Below, one piece after another: positions 30,504 through 41,062 of a stretch of 64,000 nt of DNA (position 1 is its first letter; every line of letters starts with the position of its first letter). The stretch is from assembly GCA_035944135.1 (NCBI GenBank), contig DASZBM010000001.1, positions 604,797-668,796 of the forward strand, written 5' to 3'. The position numbers and the translations under genes were made by a program. The notes beneath the pieces are model-generated. The model was not told where the DNA came from. It searched no databases and worked only from the letters and a program-made list of their open reading frames with translations. The stretch comes from Acidobacteriaceae bacterium. GTDB lineage: Bacteria; Acidobacteriota; Terriglobia; Terriglobales; Acidobacteriaceae.

Positions 30504-31964
30504 TCAGGTTGCGGGCGGAAGAGTGAAGTAGAAGGTTGCGCCTTTTTCGATAGCGCCTTCGGCCCAGATTTCGCCGCCGTGGCGGGCGAGGATGCGTTGC
30601 ACCGTGGCGAGACCGACGCCGGTGCCGGCGAACTGGGCCTTGCTATGCAGGCGATGGAAGGGTTCGAAGAGTTCAGTGGTGCGCGCGGGGTCGAAGCCGG
30701 CGCCGTCGTCTCGAACGAAATAGACAGTACGGCCATCGATAGTCTTTGCACCGAATTCGATGCAGGCGCGGGGGTGGTGCGAGGTGTACTTCCAGGCGTT
30801 GCGCAGAAGGTTGTCCAACGCAATGCGGACGAGACCGGCATCGGCTTCGACGGGCGGAAGAGTGGCGATCTGGAGGTCGACCTGGCGCGTGGGGTCGTTA
30901 CGCTGAAGGTCGGCGACGATCTTGTGCGCCATCTCGCTGAGGTCGACGCGATCACGTTTGACGGGCGTTGTAGAGGCGCGCGCGAAGTTGAGGAGATCAT
31001 CGATCAGCGCCGCCATGTTGCGCGTTGACTCCTGCAGGCGCTGCACCATCTCACGGCTGTTTTGATCGAGCTGCGCGGGGCCGCCGGAGAGCAGATAGCC
31101 GATGCCGGCGATGGAATCGAGCGGACCACGGAGGTCGTGCGCGACGGTGTAGGAAAAGGCTTCGAGCTCGCGGTTGGCAGCGCTGAGCTCGGCGGTGCGC
31201 TCTTCGACGCGCTGCTCGAGTTCGTCGCGCGATTGACGGAGTGCGGCTTCGCTCTGCTGAATCTGCTGCAGCATGTCATTGAATGCATGCGTGAGGACGG
31301 ACATTTCAATGCTATCGGCGGACTCCGTGGCGCGCACGGAGTAGTCGTGCTCGCGCGAGATGGAGCGGGCGGTCTCTGCAAGCGAAGCAATGGGTTGAGC
31401 GATGAGCCGGCGAGATAAGGCGCTGATGAGCAACGCGGCAAGCATGCAGAGAACCAGGATGAGGCCGGCGATAACCAGATAGTGGCGGGCACGCTGGCCG
31501 ATCTCGGTCAAGCTGGCGGAGATGTAGACGACGCCTTGCGGCGATCCCTCGAAGATGATGCGGTGAGCGACGAGCAGACGCCGTCCGTTGAGCCAGTGGT
31601 GCTCGTTCTCGTTGTCAGCAAGTGCGTGCCGGGCGGTGAGATTGGTTTCGTTGGGCGGGCCGTAGGTCGCAAAGACAGAACCATCCTGTTTGGTGAGCAC
31701 GGCGGAGATGACGTCGGGAGAGCGGTTGAGGCCTTGCAGCGTGGAGGCGGCGCTGGCGGGGTCGTCGAACATTAGCGCAGAGACGCTGTTGGCGCCAATG
31801 ATCTGTGCCTCAGAGCGGAGATTGTTGATGAGGCTCTGGCGGAAGGAGAGCATGTCATAGGAAAAGAACGCCAGCACAGCGAGAATCAGCACAGAGCCGC
31901 TGACGAGCAGGTTCATGCGTGTGATTCTGCCGGAGATGCTGGGGGCGCGATGCTGGGGTTTCAC
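30504..31964 (-). CDS. CHASE8/HAMP-type membrane sensor histidine kinase
   Basis: 486 residues. Topology: helix near 18-38, a periplasmic domain of about 120 residues like CHASE8 (QSLINNLRSEAQIIGANSVSALMF, then HRIIFEGSPQGVVYISASL), a second helix near 165-185, HAMP, a coiled coil (EERTAELSAANRELEAFSY), HisKA with the phospho-His in YTVAHDLRGPLDS, and HATPase_c with N box DNLLRNAWKY, DDGAGFD and GTGVGLATV. The same periplasmic type senses YfiR in the diguanylate cyclase YfiN. Its start overlaps the YfiR-like gene by four bases, and the receiver gene of the operon is the likely partner. Confidence 0.88.
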   Translation of the reverse strand: MKPQHRAPSISGRITRMNLLVSGSVLILAVLAFFSYDMLSFRQSLINNLRSEAQIIGANSVSALMFDDPASAASTLQGLNRSPDVISAVLTKQDGSVFATYGPPNETNLTARHALADNENEHHWLNGRRLLVAHRIIFEGSPQGVVYISASLTEIGQRARHYLVIAGLILVLCMLAALLISALSRRLIAQPIASLAETARSISREHDYSVRATESADSIEMSVLTHAFNDMLQQIQQSEAALRQSRDELEQRVEERTAELSAANRELEAFSYTVAHDLRGPLDSIAGIGYLLSGGPAQLDQNSREMVQRLQESTRNMAALIDDLLNFARASTTPVKRDRVDLSEMAHKIVADLQRNDPTRQVDLQIATLPPVEADAGLVRIALDNLLRNAWKYTSHHPRACIEFGAKTIDGRTVYFVRDDGAGFDPARTTELFEPFHRLHSKAQFAGTGVGLATVQRILARHGGEIWAEGAIEKGATFYFTLPPAT

Positions 31965-32551
31965 TCTGCGCCTCCTTCCGGCATCTTTCCTTTGACGCTG
32001 AGCGCCACCTTGAGCAGCTCGGAGCTCATGCCGAGATGCGCACGGTTGACCGCATTCAGGTTGATGGAAAATCGCACACGCTTTTCGACGAGCTGAAACT
32101 GGATCATGCCGCCGTGGCTGAGGAAGTCCGGCGTGTCGCTGACGGTGAGAGTGGGTCTGGTGGCGACCGCCTGGAGGAGTTCGTCGAGGTGGGCGTGCTC
32201 CGTGGCTTCAATGAAGAGGATGGCGCAGCCCGCCTCATCGCCAGGGTGCATCAGGAGACGAACGTCGAGTGGACGGCTACCGATGGTCTCGTTGGATACA
32301 GTCTTGCGGAGCGCGGCGGCAAAGGCGTCAGTGCCCGCGATACAGATCCGGAGAGGGCCCTGATCAGCGCCAGCGGGCCAGCGGACAAATTTGCCAAAGT
32401 CGAACAGGTAAACCGCTTCGACATCTGACTGCGAGGGCTGGCCAGCGGCAGCGAAGGTGTCCCGCGCGGACGCGAGAATCGTTGAGCAAAGAAGCAGAAC
32501 CGCGGAGAGCGGACGGATGCGACGAACGAGATGAGATCGCGTGGTGCGCAT
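31961..32551 (-). CDS. YfiR family (DUF4154) periplasmic protein
   Basis: 196 residues with a signal peptide (about 30 residues ending TFAA). DUF4154/YfiR pattern: VEAVYLFDFGKFVRWPAGAD, RICIAGTDAFAAALR, GCAILFIEA, LTVSDTPDFLSHGGMIQFQL and VRFSINLNAVNRAHLGMSSELLKVA. In Pseudomonas, YfiR is a soluble periplasmic inhibitor that binds the CHASE8 domain of YfiN and is released by the outer-membrane protein YfiB. Here it lies directly between a TonB receptor gene (no gap) and a CHASE8 kinase gene (4-base overlap), so it probably couples the two. Confidence 0.85.
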   Translation of the reverse strand: MRTTRSHLVRRIRPLSAVLLLCSTILASARDTFAAAGQPSQSDVEAVYLFDFGKFVRWPAGADQGPLRICIAGTDAFAAALRKTVSNETIGSRPLDVRLLMHPGDEAGCAILFIEATEHAHLDELLQAVATRPTLTVSDTPDFLSHGGMIQFQLVEKRVRFSINLNAVNRAHLGMSSELLKVALSVKGKMPEGGAE

Positions 32552-34582
32552 TTACCACGTCCAGTCGACGGAACCGAAGAAGTTGCGCCGGATCCCGACG
32601 GCGTTTCCGTTGTTGCCGGTGAACTCCTGATGATGGGGCTGGAGAATGTTGCGGCCGTTCGCCGAAAGCGTGACGTGCTCCCTGAGGTGATACGCGAGGT
32701 TGAAATCAGCGGTCTGATAGCGTGGCACCTGCAGTGCGGTAAGTGCGCTGACGAAGCGGTAGTCAGTGGTGAGCTCGACATCATGCGGGAACGAGAGGAT
32801 GGCCTGGACAGAGGCCTGATGCTCGGGACTGGAGCCCTCGTAGGTGGTGGCGTAGCTGGCCTGGCTGAATCCGGGTTTGGAGTGCAGGTTGATGCTGAGG
32901 TGAGAGTAGTTACCGCGCAGATCGAGCCAATGGACGGGCTTCCAGTCGGGCGCGACTTCGACACCGTTCGAGACACCGCGAAGTCCGTTATCGAACGGCT
33001 CGACCAGGAGATAGTGAGTATATGGCGTCGTGGGAGAGCTTAGACGAGCCGTCCCGTAGCTTTCGATGTTGTCGTGCTGATTGTGGAAAGCTGCGATGTC
33101 GACGAAGAACCGCTTAGCGAGGAGCTGCCGGTAGCCGTATTCCCAACCGATGAGGACCTCAGGTTTGAAGTTCGGATTGCCGGCGATCTCGGCAAAGAGC
33201 GGCGGATTATATCCGGGGAAGTAGCCAATGACGGTGACGTCGCGGTCGACTCGTCCCGGCGTGCGCAGAGCGCGTGAGACCGCGCCCCATAACGTAACGT
33301 GCTGCTTTGGCGTCCACAGGAGGCGAGCCGTGGGCTGCCATCCCCAGCCGCTGTAATTGTTGTTCTCGAGCTTCGTGCCCGCTGTGAAGGTGAGCTTATT
33401 GGGGACAAGCTGGATCGCGTCCTGAGCGAAGAGGCTGTAGACGTAGTTGTTGATCTGGTGCGGCTGGAAGTCCACCGTGGGAACGACCTGCGTGATGTTG
33501 CTGGGGCTTTCGCGCAGGCCACCGCCGACGATGATGTTGTTCCTCTTTACAGTGGCGAGGTTGTAGATGAAGTCGGCGTCGAAGGTATTGCGGGTCTCCG
33601 TGAACTGCGAGGTCGCGCGATCGGTGCGGTCGAAGTAGCCCTGGACGAAGAAGCTGGAGCCGCCGGCGAGCTGACGGTCCCAACGCAGCATGAGATCTCC
33701 GCCGGTGACCATCTGTTGGCCATCGACGCTGAGCTGCGCGGGAGGAGTGTACTGCCCGATTGCGACCTGGTTGCCGGTGGCGCCGCCGTAGGCCATGAAC
33801 TGCGCGCTGAAGCTATCTTTTGTGCTGGGCTGCCAATCGAGGCGGAGGCCGCCACGGGCCTGGTGCCAGCGGTCGTATGGGTCGCCACCGGGGTTGGACT
33901 CGGGGCCGCGATTGAATCCCTTGGCGAAGAGGCGGAACTGCAGATTGGCCAGCGGACTAGCGCCCCAGCGAACCTGGCCGATGAAGCGATCCACGGAGCC
34001 ACCGGCGGCGACATCTACAAATCCGCCCTGGGTATCGCGAGCCTTCCTGGTGATGATGTTGATGACGCCGTTCACGGCGTTGGCTCCCCAGACTGTGCCG
34101 CCTGGCCCGCGGATGACTTCAATGCGATCGATGTCCGCGAGCACGAGATCCTGCACGTCCCAGTAGACGCCTTCAAACAGCGGCGTGTAGACGCTGCGGC
34201 CATCGATGAGAACGAGGAGACCCTTGGAGAACTGGCTGTTGAAGCCGCGAACCGCGACTGCCCACTGATCGCTCTGCTCACGCGCGACGTTGACACCGGG
34301 AATAAGCCGCAGAAGCTCAGGGATGCTGGTTGCGCCGGAGTGGCGAATGTCGTCCTGGGTGATGACGGCGATGGCAGCCGGCGTCTGCCAGACCTCTTCA
34401 GGCTCCTTTGAGACCGTCGTGACTTCGACGTCTCCAAGCTGTGCGAGCGAGAGTTGTTTGAGCTGCTGCTCGGCCGCGGGCTGATATGGCGCCGCGAAGG
34501 CCGTGCGCCAAACGAGTGCAAGCGCAATCAGAGTGGCTGCTCCGCGGAGCGTCAACCGATTGTGTTCTCCTCTGTGCGTCAC
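32552..34582 (-). CDS. TonB-dependent receptor
   Basis: 676 residues with a signal peptide (residues 1-30). A TonB-box-like stretch GDVEVTTVSKEPEEV is followed by the plug domain (AIAVITQDDIRHSGATSIPELLRLIPGV, split; VLIDGRSVYTPLFEGVYW; RIEVIRGPGGTVWGANAVNG) and a beta-barrel ending in an aromatic residue (FFGSVDWTW). The family moves ligands such as iron chelates, vitamins or glycans into the periplasm with TonB energy; the ligand cannot be told. The barrel contains no N-terminal STN signalling domain, so signalling would pass through the YfiR-like protein coded directly after it. Confidence 0.93.
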   Translation of the reverse strand: MTHRGEHNRLTLRGAATLIALALVWRTAFAAPYQPAAEQQLKQLSLAQLGDVEVTTVSKEPEEVWQTPAAIAVITQDDIRHSGATSIPELLRLIPGVNVAREQSDQWAVAVRGFNSQFSKGLLVLIDGRSVYTPLFEGVYWDVQDLVLADIDRIEVIRGPGGTVWGANAVNGVINIITRKARDTQGGFVDVAAGGSVDRFIGQVRWGASPLANLQFRLFAKGFNRGPESNPGGDPYDRWHQARGGLRLDWQPSTKDSFSAQFMAYGGATGNQVAIGQYTPPAQLSVDGQQMVTGGDLMLRWDRQLAGGSSFFVQGYFDRTDRATSQFTETRNTFDADFIYNLATVKRNNIIVGGGLRESPSNITQVVPTVDFQPHQINNYVYSLFAQDAIQLVPNKLTFTAGTKLENNNYSGWGWQPTARLLWTPKQHVTLWGAVSRALRTPGRVDRDVTVIGYFPGYNPPLFAEIAGNPNFKPEVLIGWEYGYRQLLAKRFFVDIAAFHNQHDNIESYGTARLSSPTTPYTHYLLVEPFDNGLRGVSNGVEVAPDWKPVHWLDLRGNYSHLSINLHSKPGFSQASYATTYEGSSPEHQASVQAILSFPHDVELTTDYRFVSALTALQVPRYQTADFNLAYHLREHVTLSANGRNILQPHHQEFTGNNGNAVGIRRNFFGSVDWTW

Positions 34583-34602
34583 GTATTTTCCCTTCGCAGT
34601 AG

Positions 34603-34974
34603 CTACTGCGATCCATTAGCAGCGCCATTTAGCCTTTGTGACACGGTCTCGACGAGCCGCGCAGGATCACCCTTGCGGATGAAGCCGTCGACAAAGGGGG
34701 CAATATCGTCCGGCATCATAAGAGCGTCCGAGAGGACGAAAATCGGGGCGTTCGGATACCTCTCGCGCAGTTGCAGAGCGATTTCGGTTGCCGTCCCTCT
34801 GGCGTTGAGATGGTAGTCGAGAAGAACGAGATCGATTTGCGTTTCAGGCAGATCGAGCGTATCCAGGCTCACGAGAGCGGGGCATGACTCGAAGCCTGCG
34901 GACTGCATAATCCACCCGTAGATGCGCAGGTGCGACGGATCATCATCAATGATCAGGACGGCTGGTTTCTTCAT
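34603..34974 (-). CDS. Single-domain response regulator (receiver only)
   Basis: 123 residues with only a CheY-like receiver: IIDDDPSH with the acidic pocket, LVLLDYHL with the phospho-acceptor Asp, a Ser in VLSDA and the conserved Lys in IRKGDP. There is no output domain. It stands 20 bases before the receptor gene and is the first gene of the receptor/YfiR/kinase operon, so it is the probable phosphate acceptor of that kinase. It may act through protein contact or pass phosphate on. Confidence 0.88.
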   Translation of the reverse strand: MKKPAVLIIDDDPSHLRIYGWIMQSAGFESCPALVSLDTLDLPETQIDLVLLDYHLNARGTATEIALQLRERYPNAPIFVLSDALMMPDDIAPFVDGFIRKGDPARLVETVSQRLNGAANGSQ

Positions 34975-35152: not shown

Positions 35153-36736
35153 ATGCAGGAAATGGTGTTTTCGATCATCGAGGGCGCTCCGGAAACCGGC
35201 GATGGAGTCCGCTTTCGTGCAGTCGACCCCTCAACGGGAGGAGAGATCGAGCCCGAGTTCGTGTCGGCGAGTTTGGATGAAGTAGCGCGCGCGGCAGAGG
35301 TGGCGTCTGCGGCGGCGCCTGTGTTTGCTGCGATCAGCGCACGGGAGCGCGCGCAGTTTCTGCGTGCGATTGCGGAGGAGTTGACGGCGGATGGTGCGGC
35401 GATCATCGCACGCGCGCAGCAGGAGACAGGATTGCCGCGGCCGCGACTGGAGGGCGAACTCGCGCGCACCACGGGACAGCTTCGGTTGTTTGCGGATGTG
35501 GTGGAGGAGGGCTCGTGGGTGGACGCGCGGATTGATGAGGCGATGCCTGAGCGCAAACCGCTGCCGCGTCCGGATGTGCGCTCGATGCTGCGGCCGATGG
35601 GGCCAGTGGCGGTGTTTGGAGCGAGCAACTTTCCGCTGGCGTTTTCGGTTGCGGGAGGAGATACGGCCTCGGCGCTGGCGGCAGGCAATCCGGTGATCGT
35701 GAAAGCGCACCCGGCGCATCCGGGGACAAGCGAGCTTGCGGGGCGAGCGGTTGTGCGTGCGATAGAGAAGAGCAAGCTGCCGGCCGGAGTGTTTGCGCTG
35801 CTGTTCGATAGCGGCATTGAAGTTGGTACGGCGCTGGTGAAACATCCTGCGGTGCAGGCGGTGGCGTTTACGGGCTCGGCGAGCGGCGGACAGGCGCTGA
35901 TGAAACTTGCTGCGACGAGGCCGCAACCGATTCCCTGCTATGCAGAGATGGGCAGCACGAATCCGCTGTTTGTGCTGCCGGGCGCGCTGCGGGAGCGCGG
36001 AGCAGAGCTGGCGAAGGGGTTGCAGACGTCGTTCACGCTGGGCTCCGGGCAGTTCTGCACGAAGCCGGGGCTGGTGTTTGTGCCGCAGCGGGATGCAGAT
36101 GAATTTTTGGGCACGTTGCGCGGCGGTGTTGATGCACTGGGCGCGCATGGGATGCTGACGCCGTCGATTGCGGAGCGCTATAACTCCGCGATAACGCGGC
36201 GGCGTAGCGCAGGACAGGCGGAATGGGTTGCGGGCTTCGAAGGCGAAGCGGCCGGCGATGGAGCGGCGCGAGGAGCGGCGGTGTTCAGTGTGCCACTCGC
36301 GAAGTTTGCGGCGAGTCAGGAGCTCGAGGAAGAGATCTTCGGGCCGACGACACTGCTGGTTCACTACGACCAGACGAGCGATCTCGTCGACGTTGCGAAG
36401 CGATTGCACGGACATCTAACCGCGACGATTCACGGTACGGAAGACGATCTGCGCGAGGCGTCGGAGCTGGTGCGCGTCCTGGAGACGAAGGTGGGACGGA
36501 TACTCTTCAACGGCTATCCGACGGGCGTGGAAGTCTGTCACGCGATGGTGCATGGGGGACCGTTCCCAGCGACTTCGGACAGCCGCACGACATCCGTCGG
36601 CACGCGCGCGATCACGCGATTTGCGCGGCCGGTATGCTACCAGGACTTTCCTGATACGGCACTGCCGATGGAGTTGCGACGGGGCAATTCGCTGGGGATT
36701 CAGCGCATGGTGAACGGGAAGTCGATACGCGAGTAA
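35153..36736 (+). CDS. 2,5-dioxovalerate (2-oxoglutarate semialdehyde) dehydrogenase
   Basis: 527 residues. This aldehyde dehydrogenase family member oxidises 2-oxoglutarate semialdehyde to 2-oxoglutarate, the last step of the Weimberg pathway. Features: FRAVDPSTGGEIEPEF, GPVAVFGASNFPLAFSVAGGD, AFTGSASGGQALM, CYAEMGSTNP with the general-base Glu, and the nucleophile Cys in LGSGQFCTKPGLV. GAGGTG lies six bases before the ATG. It faces the FAH-fold gene across 15 bases and shares its pathway. Confidence 0.9.
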   Translation: MQEMVFSIIEGAPETGDGVRFRAVDPSTGGEIEPEFVSASLDEVARAAEVASAAAPVFAAISARERAQFLRAIAEELTADGAAIIARAQQETGLPRPRLEGELARTTGQLRLFADVVEEGSWVDARIDEAMPERKPLPRPDVRSMLRPMGPVAVFGASNFPLAFSVAGGDTASALAAGNPVIVKAHPAHPGTSELAGRAVVRAIEKSKLPAGVFALLFDSGIEVGTALVKHPAVQAVAFTGSASGGQALMKLAATRPQPIPCYAEMGSTNPLFVLPGALRERGAELAKGLQTSFTLGSGQFCTKPGLVFVPQRDADEFLGTLRGGVDALGAHGMLTPSIAERYNSAITRRRSAGQAEWVAGFEGEAAGDGAARGAAVFSVPLAKFAASQELEEEIFGPTTLLVHYDQTSDLVDVAKRLHGHLTATIHGTEDDLREASELVRVLETKVGRILFNGYPTGVEVCHAMVHGGPFPATSDSRTTSVGTRAITRFARPVCYQDFPDTALPMELRRGNSLGIQRMVNGKSIRE

Positions 36737-36751
36737 AGCGCCGGAATTGCA

Positions 36752-37573
36752 TCAAGCAACGCGGTTTTCGAGCGTGCCGATGCCGTCGATGGAGATGCGA
36801 ATGAGATCTCCGTGCGCGAGCGTGAAGTCGTCGCCGGGAACGATGCCCGTACCGGTCATAAGGAATGCACCGTCGGGAAACGTGTTGTCGCGGAAGAGAT
36901 AATTCGCGAGCTCGGCGGGTTCGCGCTTGAGTTCGGCGAGTGTGGTTGTGCCGTCAAAGGCTGTGCTGCCGTTGCGAATGATTTCTATGCGGATGCTGGT
37001 GGATTTCGGCAAGGGCTCGCGGCTGAGCAGGACGCAGGGACCGATTGCGCAGCTTCCGTCATAGACCTTGGCTTGTGGCAAGTAGAGCGGGTTCTCGCCT
37101 TCGATGTCGCGCGAGCTCATGTCATTGCCGATGGTGTAGCCGATGATCTCGCCGCGGGGGTTGATGAGCAGCGTGAGCTCGGGTTCGGGAACGGACCAGT
37201 GGGCGTCGGAACGGATGCGAACGCTGGCGCCATGACCGACGACGCGGCGTGCGGTGGCTTTGAAAAAGAGCTCCGGACGAGCAGCGGAGTATACGCGATC
37301 GTAGAAGCTGCCACCGCCTGCGTCTTTCGACTCCTCCATGCGAGCGCTGCGGCTGCGGAAGTAGGTGACGCCAGCGGCCCAGACTTCCTGCGAGCCGATG
37401 GGCGCGAGGATCTCGCTGGCGTTTGGCGCTGCGACGGCAGGGGAGTTGAATGCGTTCTGCGCCAGAGAGAACGGATGACTGCTGCGTACCAGGTCATCGA
37501 AGCTCGCGTTGAGGGCATGAATGTTTCCGTGTTCTTCAACGAGAAGGCCATGCGTTGTTCTGTAAATCTTCAT
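36752..37573 (-). CDS. Fumarylacetoacetate hydrolase-fold protein, probable 2-keto-3-deoxy-pentonate dehydratase
   Basis: 273 residues. FAH-like core: [32 protein letters not shown], metal-binding acidic residues in [20 protein letters not shown] split over the usual spacing, [20 protein letters not shown] and [14 protein letters not shown]. This pattern fits the KdaD/XylX branch that dehydrates 2-keto-3-deoxy-D-arabinonate or -xylonate to 2-oxoglutarate semialdehyde. The start overlaps the dehydratase stop by four bases. Confidence 0.85.
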
Positions 37574-39558
37574 GACTGCTTTCCTTGCGAATTTTGTGCA
37601 CCGCGCGCGAGTCGGCCGACGATGGCGTCGGTGTCATAGATGCATCCTCCCCATACGCCGCCGCTGGCTTCCACGAGGGCGGCCCAGAGGCGTGTGTCGG
37701 CGGGCAGAGCCGGGTGTGGTGCGAGGTCGGGACGGGGTTCACGTGCAGCAAGCCGACGCACACCTTCATCGGCGGTAAATCTCTCGTCGCCTTCGCCGAT
37801 GAGATTGACACGTCCGTGCAGCGCGTTGCGATCGACGGCGATTTCGATCCAGTCGCCATCGCGCAAGCGGCCTATGGGGCCGCCGGCGAGCGCTTCGGGA
37901 GAGATGTGACCGATACAGGCGCCTGTGGAGACACCGCTGAAGCGAGCGTCGGTGAGCACGGCGACGTGCTTGCAGAATGGCAGTGCCTTGAGCGCGGAGG
38001 TGATCTGGTAGATCTCCTGCATTCCTGCGCCAAGCGGGCCGCTGCAGATGAGGACGAGGACGTCACCATGGGCAATCTCGCCGCGTTTGATGGCGGAGAT
38101 TGCGGCTGCCTCGGTGATGAAGACCTTCGCGGGGCCTTCGTGGCGGAATGAGTTGTCTGCGTCGATGAGCGATGGATCGATGGACGTGCTTTTGATGACG
38201 CTTCCTTCGGGCGCGAGATTCCCAACAGGAAAGCAGACGGTTGAGGTGAGGCCGCGCGAGCGTGCGCGGTCGGGCGAGAGGATCACGTCGTCGGCGTCGA
38301 CGCCGTCGATCTCGCGAAGGCGTTGCTTCATTGCGCGGCGGCGTTCGCTCTGCTCCCACCAGTCGAGCGAGTGCGCGAGCGTGTCGCCGCTTGCGGTGAG
38401 GACGCTGGTATCGAGCAGGCCGGCGCGCCGCAAGTGCAGCATGACCTCGGGAACTGCGCCCGCGAGAAAGACCTGCACGGTGGCGAAGTTGCGCGGGCCG
38501 TTCGGGAGTGCATCGACCAGGCGTGGGACCTCGCGATTGGCGGACTCCCAGTCGGCGCGTGTGGGACGGCGCAAGCTTGCAGCGTGTGCGATTGCAGGAA
38601 TGTGCAGCAGGAGATTCGTCGACCCGCCAAACGCTGCGTAGACGACCATGGCATTGCGGATTGCAGCGTCTGTCAGGATGTCGCGCGTGCCAAGTCCGAG
38701 TTGCGCGAGCCGCAGCAAGGCGCGCGCCGAGCGTGTCGCGGCCTCCTGCCAGATGGGTTGGCCCGATGGCGCGAGCGCAGTATGTGGAAGCGAGAAACCA
38801 AGCGCTTCACCGACGACCTGCGAGGTCGCCGCAGTGCCGAGAAACTGGCAGCCGCCGCCTGGGCTCGCGCAGGCGCGGCAACCCATCTCGGCGGCGTACT
38901 CCTCGGTGATCTCGCCTTGTGCGAAGCGCGCGCCGATGGTTTGCACGCGGCCGGCGTCTTCGCCTTCGTCGGGCAGCAGCGTGACGCCGCCGGGTACGAG
39001 CACACTGGGCAGTGCGCCGCCGGAAGCAATCGCCATCATCATCGCGGGAAGGCCCTTGTCGCAGGTGGCGATGCCGAGCACGCCACGGCGCTGCGGAAGC
39101 GAGCGCATGAGTCGGCGAAGAACCATCGCGGCATCATTGCGGTAGGGCAGCGAGTCGAGCATGCCCTCGGTGCCTTGGGTCCGGCCATCGCAGGGGTCCG
39201 TGCAGGCGCCGGCGAAGGGTATTGCGTGCAGTCGTCGAAACTCGCGCGCGGCTTCCGCGACTAGAAGACCGACCTCCCAGTGGCCGGTGTGAAAGCCGAG
39301 TGCGATGGGCGTTCCGTCAGCCGCGCGCACGCCACCGTGAGTGCTCAGGATGAGGAATTCCGGATCGAGCAGCCGCGCGGGCTCCCAGCCCATGCCAGCG
39401 TCCTGCGAGAGCCCGAAGAGATTGCCGGAGGGTTGCGTGAGAAGCATCTCCGGCGTGATGGGTAGGATGCCTTCGGGGCCTTTGGCGTGTGTGCGGACGT
39501 CGGCGAAAAGCGACGGGTCGTTTTCGAGCACGTCCCGCAGAGGCAGCGGCTCAGGCAT
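37570..39558 (-). CDS. yjhG: YjhG/YagF family D-xylonate dehydratase
   Basis: 662 residues, an IlvD/Edd family member with Fe-S cluster. It closely follows E. coli YjhG/Yag[69 protein letters not shown] (split), [14 protein letters not shown] with a cluster Cys, [19 protein letters not shown] with another, and [18 protein letters not shown]. It dehydrates D-xylonate (or a related pentonate) to the 2-keto-3-deoxy acid. Its start overlaps the transporter stop by eight bases. Confidence 0.9.
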
Positions 39559-40894
39559 TCGCGGCCTCCTTCAGCGGATTGACTTGCGGCGGCTTTGGAA
39601 GCCAGATGATGAGCAGCGCGGAGATCACCAGAAAGAGTGACATAACGAGATATCCCGGGCGCTCACTGCCGGTAAATGCTCGCAGCCAGCCAACGACGTA
39701 GACGCCTGCGAACGCTCCCAATCCTCCGGCGCTGTTGACCAATGCCATGACTTCGCCAACGCGATTCTGCGGAATACGCTCCGGCATGATGGCGAAGAAC
39801 GGACCATAGGGTGCGTACATTCCGCCACCTGCGATTAACAGACAGATATAGGCGCCGAGAAAGCCGTGGGGTTGCAGCAGGAATGATCCCAGCAATGCGA
39901 TGCCGGAGATCAACAGAGGTGGCCAGACGAAGCGCCGCCTGTGCAGCGAGCGATCCGAGAATTGCGCGACGATGAGCATCAGCGTAATCGCAACGAGATA
40001 GGGTGCGGCGGACACCAGGCCGGTGCGTCCCATGGTGAGCGAGGCTCCCTCGCGCACAATCGTTGGTAGCCAGAGGACAAAGCCGTATACGCCGAGGCTC
40101 CAACAGAAGTATTGAATCGAGAGCACGATGACATCTTTGCGCAGAAGAGCTGTGCGGAGTGTCTGGGTCGTGGCATGCGCGGAGGCAGGAAGCTCGCGCT
40201 GCTCGGTTGCGAGCTGCGCTGTGAGTCGCTCCGCCTCGTCTGCCGGAAGCCAGCGAGCGTCCGTGGGATGCTCCCGAACGAAGAGCATCCAGATGAGGGC
40301 CCAAAGAATTGAAGGCACGCCCTCGAAGATGAAGGTACGCTGCCACCCGAAGCGTTGTATGAGAAAGCCGGTGATGGCGGACATCCAGAGCACTGTGACG
40401 GGATTGCCAAGCATCAGCAGCGTATTGACGCGGGAGCGGTCTGCGCGTGTGAACCAGCGTGTGAGGATGAGCAGGAGCGCGGGAAAGATGATGCTCTCGG
40501 CGACGCCGAGGAGAAAGCGATCGATCGCCAGCATCCAGAAGATGCGGAGCACGCCAGTCAGTGCAGCAAGTGCTCCCCAGAGAACAAGTGAGAAACCGAC
40601 GAGCCGTGTGCAACTGAATCGGCGCGCGGCGACGATCCCGGGAACCTGGAAGAAGAAATAGCCCAGGAAAAAGAGCGCGCCGAGGAGAGAGTTCTTGCCG
40701 CCGGTGATGTGCAGTGTCTCTGCCATACCTGCGGCAGCGCCGAAGCCATAGTTGGCGCGGTCGAGATAAGCGAGGCTGTAGGTGATAAACACGGCGACCA
40801 ACAGCCAGCGACGGCGTCCCCAGCGCGTGGGCTCAGCGGCAGGCGCTGCCGCGTGGATTACTGGAACATCGCGAGTTCGCAGGACGGCACACAC
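39551..40894 (-). CDS. MFS transporter, probable aldonate/hexuronate (ACS family) permease
   Basis: About 447 residues from GTG 40894. Twelve hydrophobic segments; the ACS-family pattern [15 protein letters not shown] after helix 1, the [14 protein letters not shown] loop and [11 protein letters not shown] near helix 8-9. It probably imports pentonates or uronates for the dehydratases that follow in the same operon. The frame is open to ATG 41005, but that stretch (40900-41000) is AT-rich and has no transporter similarity, so the true start is uncertain. Confidence 0.86.
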
Positions 40895-41062
40895 GCACAG
40901 GAAGTATACGCAGCCGGATCGAGAGCAGACGCGGTGTACATTTCTTCGCCGCGCAGTGTGAATTTGGGTAGTGTATTGAGTGCAACCTGACATTCTTCGC
41001 GGCAATGTTTGAGCGGCGGCTCCGCGTTTACGCGAGCTGGATGCGAAAGGAAAGCGCCTTCG

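What the first reader, a model, noticed from the sequence alone, without database searches (positions are those of the whole stretch)
30504..34974. YfiR/CHASE8 sensory module rebuilt around a TonB receptor and a histidine kinase
Seen: four minus-strand genes packed with gaps of 20, 0 and -4 bases: a receiver-only regulator, a TonB-dependent receptor, a YfiR (DUF4154) periplasmic protein, and a histidine kinase with a CHASE8-like periplasmic domain plus HAMP. Known: in the YfiBNR system of Pseudomonas, YfiR binds the CHASE8 domain of YfiN, a diguanylate cyclase, and the outer-membrane protein YfiB releases it. Inference: here the cyclase is replaced by a kinase, and YfiB by a TonB receptor, giving a route from ligand or Ton energy at the outer membrane to a phosphorelay. 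The receiver would take the signal.
Basis: partly seen in the sequence, partly recalled or inferred. Interest (0 to 1): 0.78.

Follow-up and report, generated by a model that had tools for sequence, protein, structure and literature searches.

The report
Outer-membrane receptor wired to a kinase
Four neighbouring genes encode a receiver protein, an outer-membrane receptor, a periplasmic YfiR protein and a membrane kinase, which are predicted to carry a signal from outside the cell to the inside; the receptor-YfiR-kinase set recurs in several bacterial phyla, and we found no paper that describes it.

Summary
YfiR and CHASE8 form the core: kinase F66 aligns with F70 of YfiN's proposed YfiR-binding patch and is Phe in 199 of 199 aligned proteins; YfiR distances follow CHASE8 (r 0.75), not the kinase core (r 0.19). 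A TBDR lies directly upstream of YfiR in 154 of 179 distinct loci; 43 of 49 strong members of this TBDR family lie near a YfiR. The output varies: kinase, hybrid kinase, GGDEF-EAL. New: in the window's own clade the TBDR is missing between receiver and YfiR in eight loci, one keeping a 25-codon TBDR tail, so the TBDR is an accessory input. NCBIfam already names the trio; our searches found no paper on it. TBDR-YfiR contact, sign of control, ligand and phosphotransfer are untested. Verdict: a real, divergent member of a widespread, little-described sensor class.

The parts
34603..34974 (-). Single-domain receiver (REC), first gene of the operon; predicted phospho-acceptor D53 at 34816-34818
   Evidence: Response_reg 29.7 bits; D10-12, D53, S82, K101; relatives at 46-58% identity head the same operon in nearby Acidobacteriaceae loci
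32552..34582 (-). TonB-dependent receptor, NF053590-like (TOL_0244 family); plug at residues 66-173, no N-terminal signalling (STN) domain matched
   Evidence: Plug and barrel; NF053590 581 bits, below cut-off 645
34403..34471 (-). TBDR N-terminal stretch (residues 38-60) before the plug: candidate TonB box or YfiR contact (inferred)
   Evidence: Commonest residue in 136 aligned TBDRs: L49 97%, V54 91%, K59 85%, L41 83%, S45 82%
31961..32551 (-). YfiR-like periplasmic protein (DUF4154, TOL_0243 family); C70 and C109 kept, second YfiR cysteine pair absent
   Evidence: model matches solved YfiR chains, TM-score up to 0.79 on the target
32069..32071 (-). YfiR F161, aligned with E. coli YfiR F144 and Pseudomonas YfiR F162 (proposed YfiN-binding face)
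   Evidence: Phe in 178 of 199; Pseudomonas position by the alignment; F162 from passages of PMC3375315
30504..31964 (-). Sensor histidine kinase: TM - CHASE8 - TM - HAMP - HisKA (H276) - HATPase
   Evidence: (hydropathy)
31611..31841 (-). CHASE8 periplasmic domain match (residues 42-118)
   Evidence: 51.3 bits against cut-off 27; model of residues 1-245 has mean pLDDT 92 and resembles the WalK and CitA sensor domains
31767..31769 (-). Kinase F66, aligned with E. coli DgcN F70 in the AAVVF patch
   Evidence: Phe in 199 of 199 aligned rows with a residue there (200 rows); patch from passages of PMC3375315
31254..31412 (-). HAMP domain (residues 185-237)
   Evidence: 33.4 bits against cut-off 25
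31137..31139 (-). Kinase phospho-acceptor H276 (predicted)
   Evidence: HDLRGP at 276, inside the HisKA match

Best explanation
This four-gene operon is predicted to be an outer-membrane-to-phosphorelay sensor in which YfiR likely sits on the conserved phenylalanine (F66) of the kinase's CHASE8 domain and holds the kinase in check until the TonB-dependent receptor, when occupied or energised, likely draws YfiR away, after which the kinase would phosphorylate the receiver encoded at the head of the operon. Shown by sequence: gene order, domains, kept residues at the proposed contact on both the YfiR and CHASE8 sides, evolutionary distances of YfiR that follow CHASE8 but not the kinase core, and exchange of the output domain among relatives. 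Inferred: binding itself, its inhibitory sign, capture of YfiR by the receptor, and phosphotransfer to D53. The receptor is an accessory input: relatives without it keep receiver, YfiR and kinase, so there YfiR would answer to another receptor or to a signal of its own.
For: CHASE8 in 71 of 71 sampled kinase N-parts (the window's and 70 of 195). F66 = DgcN F70, Phe in 199 of 199; YfiR F161 = F162 of Pseudomonas, Phe in 178 of 199 (roles proposed in PMC3375315, passages). Distance correlations over 136 loci: YfiR-CHASE8 0.75, YfiR-TBDR barrel 0.54, YfiR-kinase core 0.19. Reverse test in 151 genomes: 72 of 87 CHASE8 matches have a YfiR match within 3.5 kb and 75 of 80 YfiR matches have a CHASE8. 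TBDR directly upstream in 154 of 179; 43 of 49 strong members of this TBDR family lie near a YfiR. Some TBDR-YfiR pairs are followed by CHASE8-HAMP-GGDEF-EAL proteins instead (5 of 205 directly downstream; Pfam). Receiver relatives head the operon in the clade with or without the TBDR.
Against: No contact between TBDR and YfiR could be predicted or tested. The TBDR is not directly upstream in 25 of 179 loci (elsewhere in the locus in 4 of these) and is missing in the window's nearest relatives; under simple sequestration, loss of the only capture partner would leave the kinase shut. In Pseudomonas, YfiN-activating changes outside the patch also abolished YfiR binding, and V68A in the patch left some binding (passages), so the patch is a proposed site. 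Mean mutual information between YfiR and the kinase protein showed no preference for the periplasmic part over the kinase core (ratio to shuffles 1.37 for both; 1.07 against 1.12 with the tightest clusters). Direct-coupling analysis was too shallow to call contacts. C145-C152 of Pseudomonas YfiR, important for its stability, has no counterpart here. The receiver has no output domain, so the end of the pathway is unknown.
Confidence: 0.47

Rival explanations
1. Ligand relay: the TBDR imports a small molecule, YfiR binds it like a periplasmic binding protein and, when loaded, turns the CHASE8 kinase on or off; the TBDR never touches YfiR.
For: The YfiR model also resembles binding-protein lobes (3lkv E 1.9e-5; 3lft, L-Trp-bound, E 2.9e-3). 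Pseudomonas YfiR binds vitamin B6 and L-Trp at the YfiB site, weakly (passages of PMC4887326). Loss of the TBDR with retention of YfiR and kinase fits if ligand can enter by another porter.
Against: Those affinities are 35 and 77 mM. None of the four sugar-acid genes beside the window's cassette has a counterpart in the other cassette loci compared, so no cargo is suggested.
Confidence: 0.27
2. YfiR and the kinase sense periplasmic redox or envelope state by themselves; the TBDR is a co-transcribed transporter or regulated target, not the sensor.
For: C70 and C109 match the pair C71-C110 of Pseudomonas YfiR, which opens in reducing conditions (passages of PMC4655355); C109 is Cys in 200 of 200 and C70 in 156 of 200. 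The TBDR is dispensable in the clade. YfiR distances follow TBDR distances less than CHASE8 distances.
Against: The TBDR family is close to dedicated to YfiR loci (43 of 49) and precedes YfiR in the same order in named loci of several phyla, more than a mere regulated gene would need.
Confidence: 0.2
3. Ordinary neighbours: a TBDR and a two-component pair that share an operon without a common signal path, YfiR being an unrelated periplasmic factor.
For: The cassette is patchy: 11 of 61 relatives have the YfiR family, and the flanking sugar-acid genes are not shared with other cassette loci.
Against: Two-way YfiR-CHASE8 linkage and kept contact residues, and change of the output domain behind a TBDR-YfiR pair.
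Confidence: 0.04

Closest known systems
YfiBNR (E. coli YfiR-DgcN-YfiB; AwsXRO and HmsCDE by recall)
   Same: YfiR fold and DUF4154 family, CHASE8-HAMP signalling stem, the patch with its phenylalanine, YfiR gene directly before the CHASE8 gene as in E. coli yfiR-dgcN
   Different: Output is a histidine kinase, not a diguanylate cyclase; the outer-membrane partner is a TonB-dependent receptor, not the OmpA-like lipoprotein YfiB; the second YfiR cysteine pair is absent; a receiver gene is added
NCBIfam trio NF053590 / NF053591 / NF053592 (TOL_0244 TBDR, TOL_0243 YfiR-like protein, YfiR-associated kinase)
   Same: Best match of TBDR and YfiR, second-best of the kinase (after the core match to LvrA), in contiguous genes
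   Different: The window TBDR (581 of 645 bits) and kinase (179 of 194) score below the curated cut-offs; the receiver-first layout and the TBDR-less sister operons are seen here, not in the model names
FecA/FpvA-type TonB-dependent transducers (recalled)
   Same: A TBDR placed to report to the inner membrane
   Different: No STN signalling domain matched in the TBDR and no sigma or anti-sigma gene among the seven flanking genes scanned; YfiR and CHASE8 would take that place
LvrA and bacteriophytochrome-type kinase cores
   Same: Kinase core (about residues 251-484) is among the closest to these in NCBIfam and PDB
   Different: Only the catalytic core is shared; the sensor half is CHASE8

Membership tests
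YfiBNR system | YfiR (DUF4154) periplasmic protein | tested here: met
   149.3 bits; PDB YfiR chains are the best fold matches
YfiBNR system | CHASE8-HAMP stem with the Phe of the proposed YfiR-binding patch | tested here: met
   CHASE8 51.3 bits; F66 = DgcN F70, 199 of 199
YfiBNR system | Diguanylate cyclase (GGDEF) output on the CHASE8 protein | tested here: not met
   HisKA and HATPase_c instead; GGDEF-EAL is seen in some relatives
YfiBNR system | YfiB, OmpA-like outer-membrane lipoprotein beside it | tested here: not met
   No OmpA domain in the four genes or the seven flanking genes scanned; the rest of the genome was not searched for it
YfiBNR system | Second YfiR cysteine pair (C145-C152) | tested here: not met
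   Window has L144 and Q151 at the positions of E. coli C127 and C134
NCBIfam TOL_0243/0244 trio | YfiR-like protein above cut-off of NF053591 | tested here: met
   140.2 against 125 bits
NCBIfam TOL_0243/0244 trio | TBDR above cut-off of NF053590 | tested here: not met
   581 against 645 bits
NCBIfam TOL_0243/0244 trio | Kinase above cut-off of NF053592 | tested here: not met
   179.1 and 181.8 against 194 bits
NCBIfam TOL_0243/0244 trio | Neighbouring genes (implied by the model name 'YfiR-like protein-associated') | tested here: met
   TBDR-YfiR-kinase contiguous
FecA-type transducer | N-terminal STN signalling domain and linked ECF sigma/anti-sigma (recalled) | tested here: not met
   Plug starts at residue 66, no STN match; no sigma-factor gene among seven flanking genes
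Two-component system | Phospho-acceptor His and Asp, ATP-binding boxes | tested here: met
   H276, N, G1, F, G2 boxes; receiver D53
Two-component system | Phosphotransfer from this kinase to this receiver | not testable with these tools
   Needs purified proteins

The most novel reading that the evidence does not exclude
YfiR-CHASE8 is a general plug-in coupling of the Gram-negative envelope: dedicated TonB-dependent receptors report ligand capture at the outer membrane through YfiR to interchangeable inner-membrane outputs (kinase, hybrid kinase, c-di-GMP enzyme), a third route of outer-membrane signalling beside FecA-type sigma control and YfiB-type stress sensing, in which the receptor can be dropped and the core re-used.
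Probability: 0.4. Interest if true: 0.8.

Novelty: new variant of a known kind. Interest (0 to 1): 0.55.

Why it matters
TonB-dependent receptors are mostly read as transporters; signalling through them is known mainly from FecA-type sigma systems (recalled). If a dedicated TBDR family signals through YfiR to CHASE8 proteins, then a large, named but apparently undescribed class (its YfiR is found in 114 of 299 sampled genomes of the window's class, 96 above the curated cut-off) links capture of something at the cell surface to phosphorelay or c-di-GMP. The conserved F66 gives a one-residue test, and the TBDR-bearing and TBDR-less sister operons give a natural comparison.

Tried and rejected
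Direct-coupling analysis on 200 YfiR-kinase pairs (effective number 175): couplings with z above 4 were more frequent for periplasmic columns (39 of 19,071) than kinase columns (12 of 23,309), but the top pairs are scattered and column variability is not controlled; not used as contact evidence. Mutual information with shuffles, free and within clusters, gave no preference for the periplasmic part; told as evidence against.

Natural fusions of YfiR or TBDR with another of the modelled domains: none among the ORFs searched.

A ligand from gene context: the sugar-acid genes next to the cassette (aldehyde dehydrogenase, FAA hydrolase, IlvD/Edd dehydratase, MFS) have no match at E 1e-15 in the other cassette loci held (stretches mostly 5-16 kb). 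Of 12 loci with the dehydrogenase gene in the genus, only the window's own shows TBDR and receiver beside it (1.5 kb either side). Rejected as a clue.

A REC-GGDEF target in the own genome: five GGDEF matches; four were scanned and none has a receiver domain; the fifth (892 aa) was not scanned.

Counting TBDR losses from the tree: the 'noTBDR' label there includes loci cut short upstream and at least one locus (L076) whose TBDR was missed by the labelling rule, so its 17-25 changes are inflated and not used. The 21-row clade was re-read gene by gene.

F66 in CHASE8 proteins without a YfiR neighbour: four such loci at hand (L341, L344, L359, L361); three keep Phe, one does not; too few.

Full report
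WHAT IS THERE. Four minus-strand genes, first to last: receiver 34603-34974, TonB-dependent receptor (TBDR) 32552-34582, YfiR 31961-32551, histidine kinase 30504-31964. The spacings of 20, 0 and -4 bases are exact. Pfam gives DUF4154 for YfiR, plug and barrel for the TBDR, and CHASE8, HAMP, HisKA and HATPase_c for the kinase. The receiver scores just below Pfam's cut-off but has D53, S82 and K101. The kinase has two hydrophobic stretches around the CHASE8 domain. The genome has one DUF4154 match and one CHASE8 match.

IT IS NOT A ONE-OFF. NCBIfam has three models for these proteins: TOL_0244 family TBDR, TOL_0243 family YfiR-like protein, and a 'YfiR-like protein-associated' kinase. The window's YfiR passes its cut-off; TBDR and kinase fall short. 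So curators had already noticed the neighbourhood. In the held open-access library no paper was found that treats it: YfiR with TonB-dependent receptor and histidine kinase (one paper, on another subject by its listing), DUF4154 with TonB (none), CHASE8 (seven listed; one passage of PMC8846402 seen), a six-term search (299 papers; none of the 20 listed is on this by title and start of abstract), DUF4154 (one, on Pseudomonas YfiR), YfiR-like with TonB-dependent (none), YfiN with YfiR, YfiB and periplasmic (15 of 22 listed), TBDR with periplasmic, histidine kinase and Acidobacteria (two), 'YfiR family' (two), TonB-dependent with YfiN (two). These were seen as listings unless stated. Most subscription journals are not in that library.

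SURVEY. A scan of named genomes with an alignment of 38 YfiR proteins gave 345 confirmed places, of which the best 80 were kept. All come from YfiR searches seeded by the window or by its NCBIfam family, so they lean to Acidobacteriota and to good scorers. With the window they hold 261 YfiR genes, 213 after removing those at least 97% identical. Of 179 with at least 2.6 kb upstream, 154 have a TBDR directly upstream on the same strand; 4 of the other 25 have one elsewhere in the locus. Of 205 with at least 1.5 kb downstream, 188 have a CHASE8 gene directly downstream: 72 CHASE8-kinase, 97 with receiver domains added (29 with one, 68 with two), 13 with only CHASE8 recognised, 5 CHASE8-GGDEF and 1 CHASE8-REC. 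Reading the other 17 by eye in the same output, 10 more carry a CHASE8 gene in the locus and 7 do not. These labels are from my own profiles; as a check, Pfam on 71 kinase N-parts (the window's and 70 of the 195 non-GGDEF pairs) found CHASE8 in 71 and HAMP in 66, and all 71 also match DgcN/YfiN. By record titles, loci with TBDR, YfiR and CHASE8 kinase include Acidobacteriota, Gammaproteobacteria, Thermodesulfobacteriota, Myxococcota, Nitrospirota, Armatimonadota, Verrucomicrobiota and Deferribacteres; nearly all are metagenome-assembled genomes, and one title (L025) is evidently wrong.

REVERSE TESTS. In 151 genomes of the class, 72 of 87 CHASE8 matches have a YfiR match within 3.5 kb, and 75 of 80 YfiR matches (some are two pieces of one gene) have a CHASE8. 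Of the top 49 matches to the TBDR family (341 bits or more), 43 have a YfiR within 3.5 kb; three of the six others start within 32 bases of a contig end. That search scored at most seven or so TBDR candidates per genome, so it may have missed some. So CHASE8 and YfiR go together, and this TBDR family is close to dedicated to them.

CONTACT RESIDUES. Malone and colleagues (PMC3375315, passages seen) found that YfiN-activating changes in the AAVVF patch (residues 66-70) abolish or weaken YfiR binding, and proposed that F70 protrudes and is covered by a hydrophobic face of YfiR around F162. Activating changes elsewhere in YfiN also abolished binding, so the patch is a proposed site, not a mapped one. 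Aligned with E. coli DgcN, whose patch reads AAVVF, the window's kinase has SALMF, and F66 falls on F70. It is Phe in 199 of 199 rows with a residue there (200 rows) and the only invariant column in the 71-row alignment. Outside the YfiR loci, three of four CHASE8 proteins keep it and one does not. On the YfiR side F161 falls on E. coli F144 and, by the alignment, on Pseudomonas F162; it is Phe in 178 of 199. This is the best evidence that YfiR docks on CHASE8 here as in YfiBNR. The cysteines differ: the pair matching C71-C110 is kept (C109 in 200 of 200, C70 in 156 of 200), the pair matching C145-C152 is absent in the window.

SHARED DISTANCES. Over 136 loci with long TBDR sequences (of 200 pairs; GGDEF outputs and loci without or with short TBDR left out), pairwise YfiR distances follow CHASE8 distances (r 0.75), TBDR barrel distances less (0.54) and kinase-core distances hardly (0.19), although CHASE8 and kinase core are one protein; plug against barrel is 0.91. 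Over 200 pairs the partial correlations are 0.70 for CHASE8 given kinase and 0.03 the other way. I read this as YfiR and CHASE8 travelling as a unit while the output end is exchanged. Against it, mean mutual information showed no regional preference, the kinase core even leading with the tightest clusters (1.12 against 1.07), and direct coupling was too shallow.

OUTPUT IS EXCHANGEABLE. Six TBDR-YfiR loci scanned with Pfam have CHASE8-HAMP-GGDEF-EAL proteins, in one case on the opposite strand, that is, YfiN-like c-di-GMP enzymes beside a TBDR. Of 136 loci with a non-GGDEF CHASE8 gene and at least 1.2 kb beyond it, 30 have a single-domain receiver next and 32 have a REC-GGDEF gene within 1.3 kb; 60 have none of the modelled domains next (on an earlier set of 175 distinct loci). 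So in part of the class the YfiN layout is split into a CHASE8 kinase and a soluble REC-GGDEF. The window has neither; of the own genome's five GGDEF proteins four were scanned and none has a receiver domain.

THE WINDOW'S CLADE LOST THE RECEPTOR. In a quick tree of YfiR plus kinase N-part the window falls in a 21-row clade (SH-aLRT 100), Acidobacteriaceae by title or kinship. Relatives of the window's receiver (46-58% identical; in L287 over 76 residues only) head the operon in 14 of the 21, window included; in four others with enough sequence (L019, L277, L291, L310) none was seen, and three are cut short upstream. Outside the clade such receivers also occur on the opposite strand upstream (L301, L305, L309) or after the kinase (L022). 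Six are receiver-TBDR-YfiR-kinase (window, L023, L287, L288, L294, L296); eight are receiver-YfiR-kinase with no TBDR between (L016, L017, L018, L020, L021, L314, L321, L332). L325 cannot be judged for lack of upstream sequence. L294 and L314 are sisters (100) with and without the TBDR. L020 has 25 codons left, just before YfiR, that match the C-terminal end of TBDRs (71% over 24 residues with L023, 64% over 25 with L287, 48% over 25 with the window). That footprint shows loss, not late gain, in L020; the other TBDR-less loci searched gave no clear remnant. Receiver, YfiR and kinase stay, so the core must have an input without a TBDR of its own operon.

STRUCTURE. The YfiR model (mean pLDDT 87) matches solved YfiR chains best and binding-protein lobes next. 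The kinase N-part model (mean pLDDT 92) resembles WalK (E 1.4e-4 to a crystal structure) and CitA (E 1.7e-3) sensor domains. No complex was predicted.

MECHANISM. Best: a clamp. YfiR holds CHASE8; the TBDR draws YfiR off; the kinase then phosphorylates the receiver. The first part rests on aligned residues and linkage; the second on gene order and analogy with YfiB; the third on gene order and catalytic residues. The main rival is a relay in which YfiR carries a ligand that the TBDR imports; loss of the TBDR and the weak ligand binding of Pseudomonas YfiR bear on it from opposite sides.

NOVELTY. A new variant of a known kind: members of NCBIfam families for which we found no described function, tied here at residue level to YfiBNR, with exchangeable outputs and documented receptor loss.

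Noticed in passing
window 35153-41005: Sugar-acid type gene cluster (aldehyde dehydrogenase, FAA hydrolase, IlvD/Edd dehydratase, MFS transporter) next to the operon, the dehydrogenase divergent from it. Same-genus locus L374 has dehydrogenase, hydrolase and dehydratase without the cassette in view.
   Followed up: partly
L170 and L171: TBDR-YfiR pairs with no CHASE8 gene in the stretch; the large genes scanned nearby are unrelated (a glucodextranase-domain protein and FtsK). Orphan pairs or trans partners.
   Followed up: no
L161: A TBDR-YfiR pair followed by a MASE1-PAS kinase and a REC-GGDEF gene instead of a CHASE8 kinase: possible change of the YfiR docking domain.
   Followed up: no
L178: Tandem TBDR-YfiR-TBDR-YfiR before one CHASE8 hybrid kinase and a REC-GGDEF gene: two receptors may feed one kinase.
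   Followed up: no
L064 and L186: Order YfiR-TBDR-kinase, with the TBDR between YfiR and the kinase.
   Followed up: no
TBDR residues 38-60 (window 34403-34471): Conserved pre-plug stretch, consensus near LSLEDLMNVEVTSVSK in 136 TBDRs; function unknown, candidate TonB box plus extra contact.
   Followed up: partly
   Followed up: partly
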